From Pseudobutyrivibrio sp. YE44 (GTDB lineage: Bacteria; Bacillota; Clostridia; Lachnospirales; Lachnospiraceae): 64,000 nucleotides of DNA. Under the pieces are notes generated by a model. It was given only the letters and a program-made list of their open reading frames with translations. It ran no database searches and was not told the origin of the DNA. Shown here one piece after another: positions 738 to 15,492 of the stretch. Where the stretch lies: NCBI RefSeq assembly GCF_900104335.1, contig NZ_FMXT01000003.1, forward strand, positions 186,001-250,000. Reading direction: 5' to 3'. The position numbers were made by a program, and so were the translations under genes. Each line of letters opens with the position of its first letter. The stretch's first letter is position 1.

Positions 738-767
738 TTGACAATCCAATATACATAATGATATAAT
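738..767 (+). promoter_or_regulatory. Sigma-A promoter of rplJ-rplL
   Basis: TTGACA at 738-743 and TATAAT at 762-767 are separated by 18 bases. Both hexamers match consensus. The predicted start near 774 begins exactly at the L10 leader RNA. Confidence 0.85.
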
Positions 768-770
768 GCA

Positions 771-890
771 CAAAGTTGTTGCCGAAGACAGCAGGTGGCG
801 CAAGCCGTAAAGAGTTAATCTCTACCAGCCGAGGACGATTAAGTATTTATCGACTAATCAACCTCTATGTCTACGGGCATAGAGGTTTTT
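771..890 (+). ncRNA. Ribosomal protein L10 leader
   Basis: The untranslated region carries the purine-rich kink-turn and stem pattern typical of L10(L12)4-binding leaders. It contains GGTGGCGCAAGCCGTAAAGAG near 796-816 and TACCAGCCGAGGACGATTAA after it. It ends with a perfect 8-bp hairpin (CCTCTATG at 862-869 with CATAGAGG at 878-885) followed by five T. This layout suggests control by attenuation: excess L10-L12 complex would bind the leader and favour the terminator. The family assignment is from memory of the L10 leader pattern; the terminator is seen directly. Confidence 0.8.
862..890 (+). terminator. Attenuator in L10 leader
   Basis: An 8-bp perfect stem with an 8-base loop is followed by TTTTT, 53 bases before the rplJ start. 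Confidence 0.85.
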
Positions 891-942
891 ATACTTTATC
901 CTCATATAAGCAACACAAAATATTATAAGGAGGAAAAAATTC

Positions 943-1515
943 GTGGCAAAAGTTGAATTAAAGCAGCCAATAGTTGACGAGATTTCAGCACAGGTTAAAG
1001 ATGCAGCTTCAGTTGTAGTTGTTGATGCTCGTGGACTTACAGTTGCAGAAGACACACAGTTACGTAAGCAGCTTCGTGAAGCTGGTGTTACTTACAAGGT
1101 TTATAAGAACACTCTTATGAAGCGTGCTTTCGAGGGAACTGACTTTGCACAGCTTGATGATGTTCTTGAAGGACCAAGCGCAATCGCTGTATCTAAGGAA
1201 GATGCTACAGCACCAGCAAGAATCCTTGCTAAGTTTGCTAAGACAGCTCAGAATCTTGAGATTAAGGCAGGCGTTGTTGAGGGAACATTCTATGATGCAA
1301 AGGGTATGTCTGCAGTAGCAGCAGTACCAAGCAGAGAGGAACTTCTTTCAAAGTTACTTGGAAGCTTACAGTCTCCAATCACAAACTTCGCTCGCGTTCT
1401 CAACCAGATCGCAGAGCAGGGTGGTGCATCTACAGAGGCACCTGCAGCAGAGGAAGCTCCAGCAGCAGAGGCAGAGGCACCAGCAGAGGAGCCAGCTGAG
1501 GCTCCAGCAGAGTAG
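943..1515 (+). CDS. rplJ: 50S ribosomal protein L10
   Basis: L10 forms the base of the ribosomal stalk and anchors L7/L12 dimers. The GTG start at 943 is chosen because AAGGAGG lies 9 bases upstream and the protein then begins MAKVELKQPIV. The core matches the family (VVVDARGLTVAEDTQLRK, residues 25-42; YKVYKNTLMKRA). The protein is 190 residues, longer than the usual 165-175, because of a C-terminal tail of about 25 residues made almost entirely of Glu, Ala and Pro. The gene is expressed from the promoter and leader directly upstream. The stop codon is one base before an RNA-like element (1517-1654) that separates it from rplL. Confidence 0.97.
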   Translation: MAKVELKQPIVDEISAQVKDAASVVVVDARGLTVAEDTQLRKQLREAGVTYKVYKNTLMKRAFEGTDFAQLDDVLEGPSAIAVSKEDATAPARILAKFAKTAQNLEIKAGVVEGTFYDAKGMSAVAAVPSREELLSKLLGSLQSPITNFARVLNQIAEQGGASTEAPAAEEAPAAEAEAPAEEPAEAPAE

Positions 1516-1516
1516 A

Positions 1517-1654
1517 CTCATTCAGAGCCAAGTAAATTTTAGAAGAATTTTGATGCTTGCATCATAAATTAAGATAAAATTTATTTGGTGAGAACAAATT
1601 ATGAGCAAAAGGAAAGCTTTGAAAAAGCGATTTTGCGAATAATTTCTGAATGAG
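1517..1654 (+). ncRNA. Three-way-junction RNA element, copy A
   Basis: This intercistronic structure lies between rplJ and rplL. The closing stem pairs CTCATTCAG (1517-1525) with CTGAATGAG (1646-1654). Arm 2 pairs CCAA (1528-1531) with TTGG (1585-1588), then TAAATTTT (1533-1540) with AAAATTTA (1576-1583). Arm 3 pairs AAATTAT (1596-1602) with ATAATTT (1639-1645), then GCAAAA (1605-1610) with TTTTGC (1631-1636). A second copy at 14646-14788 has the same junction bases (AGCCAAGTA and ATTTGGTGAGAAC) but different, still complementary, stems. I cannot assign it to a named RNA family. In this position it could affect the L10:L12 ratio, or simply be a mobile structured repeat. Confidence 0.7.
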
Positions 1655-14610: not shown

Positions 14611-14644
14611 AAGCCCTTCGAGGATTTCCTCGGAGGGCTTTTTT
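14611..14644 (+). terminator. Terminator after tuf
   Basis: The AGCCCT...AGGGCT stem continues inward with CGAGG/CCTCG, and is followed by six T. It ends just before RNA-like element copy B. Confidence 0.93.
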
Positions 14645-14645
14645 G

Positions 14646-14788
14646 TTACTATTCAAAGCCAAGTATAATTTAATAGAAATAGATTGCTTGCAAATATTAT
14701 TCTCTTAAATTATATTTGGTGAGAACCACACATGAGGAAAAGGAAAATCAGCGTGGCTTCAATTTTCCTTATGTGTGATGAATAGTAA
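14646..14788 (+). ncRNA. Three-way-junction RNA element, copy B
   Basis: This is the second copy of the structure seen at 1517-1654. The closing stem pairs TTACTATTCA (14646-14655) with TGAATAGTAA (14779-14788). Arm 2 pairs CCAA with TTGG, then TATAATTTAA (14664-14673) with TTAAATTATA (14705-14714). Arm 3 pairs CACACAT (14727-14733) with ATGTGTG (14771-14777), then GGAAAA (14736-14741) with TTTTCC (14763-14768). The stems differ from copy A but stay complementary, while AGCCAAGTA and ATTTGGTGAGAAC are identical. It ends 26 bases before the YczE-like gene, where a leader element would sit. Confidence 0.7.
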
Positions 14789-14814
14789 AATATGAAGATA
14801 TAGAGGTAGTAGAA

Positions 14815-15492
14815 GTGTTTCAAAGAAATAAGGACAATGACACAATAAAGAAAATAGTATCAAATATGCTCCTTGCAACAGCGAGCCTATTTATTAATGG
14901 CTTTGGAGTATATCTTACTATTCAAGCCAATATTGGAGCATCTCCATGGGATGTTCTTAATCTTGGATTATCAAATACTTTTGGGATACTTTATGGAACG
15001 GCTGCAATTATTGTTTCATTCTCAATTTTAGGAATCGATCTTTTGATGAAAGAGCCTATTGGAATAGCAATGATAATCGATTCTATTGTAGTAGGAAAAG
15101 CTGTTGATTTCTTTAATAGGATTAAGTTAGTACATAAATGTGATTCCATATTTGTAGCCGTGCCAGTTATGATTCTAGGGCTCTTTATCATGGGTTATAC
15201 TCAGTTTACTTATATGAGTGCATCATTAGGCTGCGGTCCCCGCGATACACTACTAATTGGACTAACAAGAAGAACAAAACATGTGTCTATTGGTTTAGTT
15301 AGTATCATTCTACTTGCAACAGCCACAGTAGTAGGATGGCTTCTTGGTGGCCCTGTTGGAATAGGAACAATTATATGTGCTTTTGGAATGGGACCAATAA
15401 TGCAGTTTGCATTCTTTACTGTTAGGTTTAATGCTACAGAGATTAGGCATCAAACTATAATAGAGTCTTTTAGGGTAATTAAAAATAAATAG
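14815..15492 (+). CDS. YczE/YitT-like integral membrane protein
   Basis: This 225-residue polytopic membrane protein resembles the YczE/YyaS/YitT group, whose molecular function is not established. About five hydrophobic segments are visible (for example LLATASLFINGFGVYLTIQ near residue 20 and VSIILLATATVVGWLLGG near 160). The conserved stretches GASPWDVLNLGL and ASLGCGPRDTLLIGL look like an internal duplication, typical of the family. The GTG start at 14815 has AGAGGTAG about 7 bases before it. The RNA-like element copy B lies directly upstream, which suggests regulated expression. A terminator follows at 15501. Confidence 0.75.
   Translation: MFQRNKDNDTIKKIVSNMLLATASLFINGFGVYLTIQANIGASPWDVLNLGLSNTFGILYGTAAIIVSFSILGIDLLMKEPIGIAMIIDSIVVGKAVDFFNRIKLVHKCDSIFVAVPVMILGLFIMGYTQFTYMSASLGCGPRDTLLIGLTRRTKHVSIGLVSIILLATATVVGWLLGGPVGIGTIICAFGMGPIMQFAFFTVRFNATEIRHQTIIESFRVIKNK

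What the first reader, a model, noticed from the sequence alone, without database searches (positions are those of the whole stretch)
1517..1654. RNA-like three-way junction between rplJ and rplL, with a covarying second copy
Seen directly: this element and the one at 14646-14788 share AGCCAAGTA at the closing stem, ATTTGGTGAGAAC at the junction and GCTTGC in the arm-2 loop, but differ in all stems. In each copy the stems remain fully complementary (CTCATTCAG/CTGAATGAG against TTACTATTCA/TGAATAGTAA; TAAATTTT/AAAATTTA against TATAATTTAA/TTAAATTATA; AAATTAT/ATAATTT against CACACAT/ATGTGTG; GCAAAA/TTTTGC against GGAAAA/TTTTCC). Conserved loops with compensated stems are the signature of a selected RNA structure. 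I cannot match it to a named riboswitch or leader. Between L10 and L12 it might set their unequal ratio.
Basis: partly seen in the sequence, partly recalled or inferred. Interest (0 to 1): 0.85.

Follow-up and report, generated by a model that had tools for sequence, protein, structure and literature searches.

The report
Mobile structured RNA between ribosomal genes
The folded RNA found between two ribosomal-protein genes is a real, evolutionarily maintained structure, but it is one copy of a scattered, transposon-like RNA family (Rfam "Clostridiales-1") that entered this spot in one lineage, rather than a conserved control element of those two genes.

Summary
In detail: both elements fold as described (z -7.7 and -8.0). 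Element 1 matches Rfam RF01699 (Clostridiales-1) full length at exactly 1517-1654, below the curated cut-off (39.1 of 48 bits, E 1.6e-7); 11 of 36 copies in its genus reach the cut-off. It is an insertion: 20 of 20 other genus genomes measured have a 41-79 nt rplJ-rplL spacer without it, and a model of it finds nothing significant in 80 named rplJ loci. RF01699 occurs in 160 of 299 same-family genomes, at least 93 and 111 copies in two. Copies there have inverted ends and 6-9 nt target duplications in 60 of 88 (control 0.9%): a MITE-like element whose body is a structured RNA. In Pseudobutyrivibrio, 36 copies at 23 places covary strongly; 21 of 23 lie sense to the next gene, 18 directly behind a T-tract or stop codon. 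Orthologous copies differ by compensated pairs. Not in print in my searches: the family's mobility, the variant lacking one hairpin, the sense bias. Function unproven; an L10:L12 role is not supported.

The parts
1517..1654 (+). Copy 1: three-way-junction RNA element, RF01699-like, inserted between rplJ and rplL
   Evidence: RF01699 39.1 bits (cut-off 48), E 1.6e-7, model 1-166; R1 152 bits (R1 was built from it); fold
1517..1526 (+). closing stem P1, 5' strand (pairs with 1645-1654)
   Evidence: fold
1645..1654 (+). closing stem P1, 3' strand
   Evidence: fold
1527..1589 (+). arm 1: base stem 1527-1541 with 1575-1589, inner hairpin with apical GCTTGC 1555-1560
1590..1596 (+). junction GAGAACA, part of the shared GGTGAGAAC
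1597..1644 (+). arm 2 with conserved ATGAG...CGAAT internal loop (read here as tandem G.A pairs, inference), inner stem GCAAAA/TTTTGC and small hairpin 1616-1628
14645..14789 (+). Copy 2: same kind of element between the tuf terminator and ORF 14815-15492; inverted ends GTTACTATTCA / TGAATAGTAAA
   Evidence: R1 140.1 bits (R1 was built from it); no RF01699 match at E up to 10; fold
943..1515 (+). rplJ (ribosomal protein L10), upstream neighbour of copy 1
   Evidence: PF00466
1694..2071 (+). rplL (L7/L12), downstream neighbour of copy 1
   Evidence: PF00542 and PF16320
13386..14573 (+). tuf (EF-Tu), upstream neighbour of copy 2
   Evidence: PF00009 and PF03143
14613..14644 (+). terminator-like GC hairpin (14613-14638) and T-tract directly before copy 2
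   Evidence: sequence
14815..15492 (+). ORF downstream of copy 2, membrane protein of YczE/YitT type by my recollection only
   Evidence: no Pfam family at E 1e-3; homologues in other genus genomes

Best explanation
The element is a lineage-specific insertion of a non-autonomous, MITE-like mobile element whose whole body is the structured RNA that Rfam calls Clostridiales-1 (RF01699); copies 1 and 2 belong to a Pseudobutyrivibrio variant that lacks the extra hairpin of the Rfam model. Shown by computation: relationship to RF01699, dispersal at high copy number, inverted ends and target duplications in other genera, an occupied site against empty sites at rplJ-rplL, covariation, and sense-biased placement of the retained copies. 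Inferred: an unidentified transposase acts in trans on the inverted ends; once a copy lies in sense in a transcribed spacer (behind a stop codon or terminator, in front of a ribosome-binding site) the RNA folds on itself as a closed three-way junction, which leaves the neighbouring stop codon and ribosome-binding site free; selection then keeps the fold, so that stems change only in pairs while loops and junction stay. Whether the folded RNA also acts on the next gene or binds a factor is open.
For: RF01699 match at exactly 1517-1654; 11 of 36 genus copies at or above the cut-off, among them the G325 orthologue of the third own copy behind pckA (48.5 bits). Empty sites: 20 of 20 measured genus genomes, 0 of 80 named rplJ loci with R1 (best E 0.67). 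Dispersal: 160 of 299 genomes; at least 93, 31 and 111 copies in G271, G232, G038. Target duplications of 6-9 nt, mostly 7, in 60 of 88 parsed copies against 15 of 1734 control draws; 22 of 110 loci were not parsed and left out. Covariation. Compensated changes between orthologous copies, e.g. L289 against L301. Downstream gene sense in 21 of 23 places, binomial p 6.6e-5; co-directional sense to antisense 17:2 against 24:17 in the high-copy genomes, Fisher p 0.019. Rfam matches directly upstream of copies: RNase P RNA (L313), 6S RNA (L320), FMN (L309) and TPP (L291, L292) riboswitches, T-box (L308, E 3e-15 but under its cut-off). More G.U than A.C mismatches in stems, 18:7 pair states and 59:30 cells.
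Against: Copy 1 is under the RF01699 cut-off and copy 2 has no RF01699 match. No target duplication was seen by eye at the copies of the window's genus, and I did not test it systematically. No transposase or autonomous partner was identified, and its genes were not searched for. In the high-copy genomes orientation is not significantly biased (24:17, p 0.35). In one search the element is better conserved than the 60 nt upstream in only 6 of 10 ortholog pairs (in some the upstream stretch is coding). Retention is dispensable: relatives of the atpE-atpF carriers lack it or hold a relic. No expression data.
Confidence: 0.8

Rival explanations
1. A leader or spacer RNA dedicated to rplJ-rplL that sets the unequal L10:L12 ratio.
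For: Position between the two genes, element end 39 nt before the rplL start, strong fold. The same kind of element lies between atpE and atpF in four genomes, another pair of genes with unequal product numbers (stoichiometry recalled).
Against: Absent in 20 of 20 other genus genomes measured and in 80 named rplJ loci; other copies sit beside valS, ribD, thiE, pyrG, argC, 6S RNA, RNase P RNA and others (gene names other than those are my reading of the protein sequences).
Confidence: 0.05
2. An inert MITE: stems stay complementary because replication template switching in inverted repeats copies one arm onto the other (quasi-palindrome correction), not because the RNA works.
For: Outer P1 differs from place to place yet is complementary, and at several places (L325, L296, L294, atpE copies) its 5' strand runs through the host gene's stop codon, so the other strand looks like a copy of host sequence (by eye). 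Of 125 pairs of Watson-Crick types seen at stem positions only 46 are of the transition type that passes through G.U.
Against: G.U exceeds A.C (18:7 states; 59:30 cells), which palindrome copying does not predict; unpaired loop and junction columns are among the most conserved; sense bias of retained copies. The G.U counts are not independent events.
Confidence: 0.25
3. A domesticated cis-acting regulator: kept copies control read-through, mRNA stability or translation of the gene behind them.
For: 21 of 23 places sense to the downstream gene; several between a riboswitch or T-box and the gene it controls; element better conserved than the following 60 nt in 10 of 10 ortholog pairs; 4 genera-wide low-copy set 11 sense to 4 antisense among co-directional places.
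Against: Downstream genes have no common theme; copies are lost in close relatives; no functional data.
Confidence: 0.35
4. A free-standing small RNA gene that acts in trans, as the Rfam type 'sRNA' suggests.
For: Rfam type label Gene; sRNA; in the 2010 table the motif is marked probably RNA, not cis-regulatory (PMC2864571 passage).
Against: Retained copies sit within operons or between a terminator and a ribosome-binding site with no obvious room for an own promoter (by eye).
Confidence: 0.1

Closest known systems
Clostridiales-1 RNA, Rfam RF01699 (Weinberg et al. 2010, PMC2864571)
   Same: Closing stem, arm with GCTTGC apical loop, arm with ATGAG...CGAAT internal loop, matched over the whole model; 11 of 36 genus copies at or above the cut-off.
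   Different: The window's copies lack about 34 model positions, the third hairpin (alignment). The 2010 table calls it probable RNA, not cis-regulatory; the two passages that I saw say nothing of mobility (additional files not held).
bcr1 and the other bcr repeats of the Bacillus cereus group (PMC6542083, passages)
   Same: About 100-400 bp dispersed non-coding repeats with mobile-element features and up to 130 copies per genome; listed with a conserved structure in PMC2267715 (passages).
   Different: Different sequence and host group; the passages tie bcr mobility to TTTAT repeats. No sequence comparison was made here.
MITEs / RUP, BOX, ERIC-type bacterial repeats (general knowledge, recalled; search listings only)
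   Same: Short, inverted ends, target duplication, no gene of its own.
   Different: Here the body is a covarying RNA with conserved loops over many genera.
Group IIC introns (recalled)
   Same: They insert behind terminator hairpins in sense.
   Different: No intron domains or RT; far shorter; target duplications in related genomes point to a DNA transposase. Not tested by a model beyond the Rfam scans.

Membership tests
Clostridiales-1 (RF01699) | Score at or above Rfam's gathering cut-off (48 bits) | tested here: not met
   Copy 1 39.1 bits; copy 2 no match at E up to 10; third own copy 37.5 bits
Clostridiales-1 (RF01699) | Relatives of the same clade at or above the cut-off | tested here: met
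   11 of 36 full-length genus copies, including the G325 orthologue of the third own copy
Clostridiales-1 (RF01699) | Whole-model alignment with closing stem, GCTTGC arm and ATGAG/CGAAT arm | tested here: met
   Model 1-166 aligned to 1517-1654
Clostridiales-1 (RF01699) | Third hairpin of the model (about 34 positions) | tested here: not met
   34 model positions without letters in copy 1 (alignment). I therefore file it as a variant of the family
MITE-like mobile element (copies in G038, G271, G232) | Inverted ends and target-site duplication | tested here: met
   60 of 88 parsed copies, control 15 of 1734
MITE-like mobile element (copies of the window) | Inverted ends | tested here: met
   GTTACTATTCA/TGAATAGTAAA for copy 2, shared with a second family in the genome
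MITE-like mobile element (copies of the window) | Empty site in relatives | tested here: met
   rplJ-rplL spacers of 20 of 20 measured genus genomes
MITE-like mobile element (copies of the window) | Target-site duplication | tested here: inconclusive
   none seen by eye; not tested systematically
MITE-like mobile element | Autonomous partner with the same ends | not tested
   12 further end sites in G232 were short mini-elements by eye; no transposase search was run
Cis-regulatory leader of rplL | Conservation at rplJ-rplL in relatives | tested here: not met

The most novel reading that the evidence does not exclude
Clostridiales-1 is a mobile cis-acting RNA module: a transposable element whose cargo is a folded RNA. 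When it lands in sense at the end of a transcript or cistron it is kept, its stems are rewritten in step (even using the host's stop codon as one strand of its closing stem) and it becomes a new post-transcriptional control point, so that a bacterial family has been spreading ready-made RNA regulators behind riboswitches, T-boxes, structural RNAs and operon genes.
Probability: 0.3. Interest if true: 0.85.

Novelty: new variant of a known kind. Interest (0 to 1): 0.55.

Why it matters
Clostridiales-1 has been listed since 2010 as a structured RNA of unknown role. Showing that it is a dispersed, transposon-like element with target duplications, present in 160 of 299 same-family genomes searched, changes what experiments make sense and warns against reading any one copy, such as this one, as a gene-specific regulator. 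If retained copies do act on their neighbours, the family would be a natural series of independent insertions with which to measure how mobile RNA structures become regulators.

Tried and rejected
L10:L12 ratio element: rejected as a conserved role, by empty sites. Known riboswitch or leader: at Rfam's cut-offs the window holds only the L10 leader at 764-900. Strict orientation to replication: not measured; two genus copies 7 kb apart in G325 lie on opposite strands, which speaks against it. Orientation selection in young copies: no significant bias, 24:17. Autonomous transposase: the 12 further end sites in G232 and one candidate pair of ends in the own genome gave short mini-elements and ordinary-looking ORFs by eye; no family search for transposases was run. 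Single sites with the end motif GTTACTATTCA in the own genome mostly lie in unrelated sequence. The own-genome pattern search had as many hits for the reversed control pattern (103 against 126), so single hits of it mean nothing; only inverted pairs were used. Literature: eight searches in an open-access library found no paper that treats Clostridiales-1 as mobile; subscription papers and Additional files of the 2010 paper were not available.

Full report
Check of the observation. Folded as RNA, 1517-1654 gives -45.2 kcal/mol (z -7.7) and 14645-14789 gives -48.6 (z -8.0), with 0 of 200 dinucleotide shuffles as good. Copy 1 is a three-way junction: P1 (1517-1526 with 1645-1654), arm 1 (1527-1589) with apical GCTTGC, junction GAGAACA, arm 2 (1597-1644). 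The shared AGCCAAGTA and ATTTGGT are mostly the two strands of the base of arm 1 rather than loops.

Name. At Rfam's cut-offs the window shows only the L10 leader at 764-900. With relaxed thresholds copy 1 aligns over the whole of RF01699, Clostridiales-1, at exactly 1517-1654 (39.1 bits, cut-off 48, E 1.6e-7), lacking about 34 model positions that form a third hairpin. Copy 2 has no RF01699 match at E up to 10. The own genome has five RF01699 matches at E up to 10, none over the cut-off; the best two are copy 1 and a copy behind pckA, 37.5 bits. A control of 14 known genomes rings in 4 at that loose E and in 0 at E 1e-3.

It is an insertion. The nearest named relatives are Pseudobutyrivibrio (L10 94-95% identical); the genus name for the window rests on that. 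Of 23 genus loci with rplJ, 21 gave a readable rplJ-rplL spacer: the own genome 178 nt with the element, the other 20 between 41 and 79 nt without it, including two species with 97% identical L10. In one further locus the L12 motif was not found by my script but the printed sequence shows a short spacer; one locus is cut. In 80 named rplJ loci from other Lachnospiraceae and relatives a covariance model of the element (R1) finds only E 0.67 and 0.83.

A dispersed family. Full scoring of three genomes gives 93 (G271), 31 (G232) and 111 (G038) copies; for G271 and G038 only 150 of 177 and 169 candidates were scored, so these are lower bounds. I took 110 loci from these genomes; a script located the element in 88, the other 22 were left out. 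In 60 of 88 an exact 6-9 nt repeat, 7 nt in 45, flanks the full element, against 15 of 1734 control draws with another copy's flank. Ends are GATACC and GGTATC or a GATGT-like inverted end. Target sites are AT-rich. In G232, 12 further end sites lack the core; at least four are the same 78-bp arm-1-only miniature, with flanking repeats visible by eye, so the core seems not to be needed for mobility. In these genomes 35 of 83 copies with neighbours lie between divergent genes, 7 between convergent ones, 24 sense and 17 antisense between co-directional genes.

The genus variant. R1, built from copies 1, 2 and the pckA copy (A1), finds matches in 17 of 29 genus genomes at E up to 0.01 and 36 full-length copies of at least 100 bits in 14 of them. 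The own genome has four: copies 1 and 2, the pckA copy and C16:117225-117370. 11 of the 36 reach the RF01699 cut-off. Alignment A3 of these copies gives the covariation listed above.

Placement. By flanking sequence and neighbouring genes I grouped the 36 copies by eye into 23 places. By a simple ORF caller the 36 copies are 26 sense-sense, 5 antisense-antisense, 5 divergent, 0 convergent; per place 17, 2 and 4 (the valS group was called divergent in two copies and sense-sense in two; I counted it divergent). The downstream gene is sense at 21 of 23 places. A run of at least four T lies within 12 nt upstream in 16 of 36 copies, against 5 of 36 on the downstream side; 11 places carry such a T-run and 7 others lie at the stop codon of the preceding gene, 18 of 23 in all. 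Rfam finds RNase P RNA ending where the L313 copy begins, 6S RNA just before the L320 copy, an FMN riboswitch before the L309 copy, a TPP riboswitch before the L291 and L292 copies, and a T-box (70.2 bits, E 3e-15, under its cut-off of 93) before the L308 copy in front of valS. In most sense places the element ends within about 40 nt of the start codon (by eye). In 22 low-copy genomes of other genera 24 of 25 copies could be classed: 11 sense, 4 antisense, 6 divergent, 3 convergent.

Change in place. Copies at the same place in different species: pckA (G000, G325), atpE-atpF (four genomes, with relics in G309 and G322 by eye), valS, thiE, pepD-like and others. L289 against L301 shows several base pairs changed on both sides at one place. 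The element is more alike than the following 60 nt in 10 of 10 ortholog pairs, but more alike than the preceding 60 nt in only 6 of 10, and the pairs share genomes. Stem mismatches are more often G.U than A.C: 18 to 7 pair states in A3 without two constitutive G.U pairs, 59 to 30 cells in the three high-copy genomes; these are not independent events. Against pure selection, 79 of 125 pairs of Watson-Crick types at stem positions are not linked through G.U, and at several places the outer closing stem includes the host gene's stop codon, so replication template switching in inverted repeats remains a live alternative.

Copy 2. It lies behind the tuf terminator. G324 lacks it at the corresponding place; G317 has a partial copy (3' half) directly before the same ORF. 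Its inverted end GTTACTATTCA is shared by six ~190-bp elements in the own genome, which form a second structured family (77 pairs, 29 with both sides changed) with matches in 22 of 29 genus genomes and no good Rfam match (RF01699 at E 0.34).

Reading. I take copy 1 as a member of a variant clade of Clostridiales-1 and the family as MITE-like mobile elements whose body is a structured RNA. That sense copies are kept in transcribed spacers because the RNA folds into a closed module is inference; an active regulatory role is possible and untested. Nothing of this mobility was found in print in eight searches of an open-access library; of the 2010 paper I saw passages only.

Noticed in passing
L175-L180 (own genome; C9:92771, C14:49737, C16:85650, C16:617893, C19:141915, C20:42379): Second family of ~190-bp structured elements with constant ends GTTACTATTCACAG, constant loops and hypervariable but complementary stems (77 pairs, 29 changed on both sides); 22 of 29 genus genomes have matches; no good Rfam match.
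   Followed up: partly
L287 about 1500-2110 (own genome C23:350562-351175): A ~600-bp element, largely inverted-repeat, with the same end motif TTTACTATTCACAG; no ORF of 80 aa inside by eye.
   Followed up: no
L358, L366, L367, L359 (atpE-atpF spacer of G319, G317, G324, G309): Another hairpin element (ATGTATCAAGGAGGGGCC...) in the same spacer; in G309 it follows the 5' half of a Clostridiales-1-like relic.
   Followed up: no
L275, L276, L279, L282 (G232): 78-bp arm-1-only miniatures with the same ends and flanking direct repeats, i.e. a MITE of a MITE.
   Followed up: partly
window 764-900: L10 leader RF00557 upstream of rplJ, 68.3 bits.
   Followed up: no
L083, rplJ-rplL spacer: In a Lachnospiraceae MAG the rplJ-rplL spacer (325 nt) holds tandem copies of an unrelated ~125-nt repeat.
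   Followed up: no
L147, L200, L237, L244 and others (G038, G271): Clostridiales-1 elements in head-to-tail tandem arrays.
   Followed up: no
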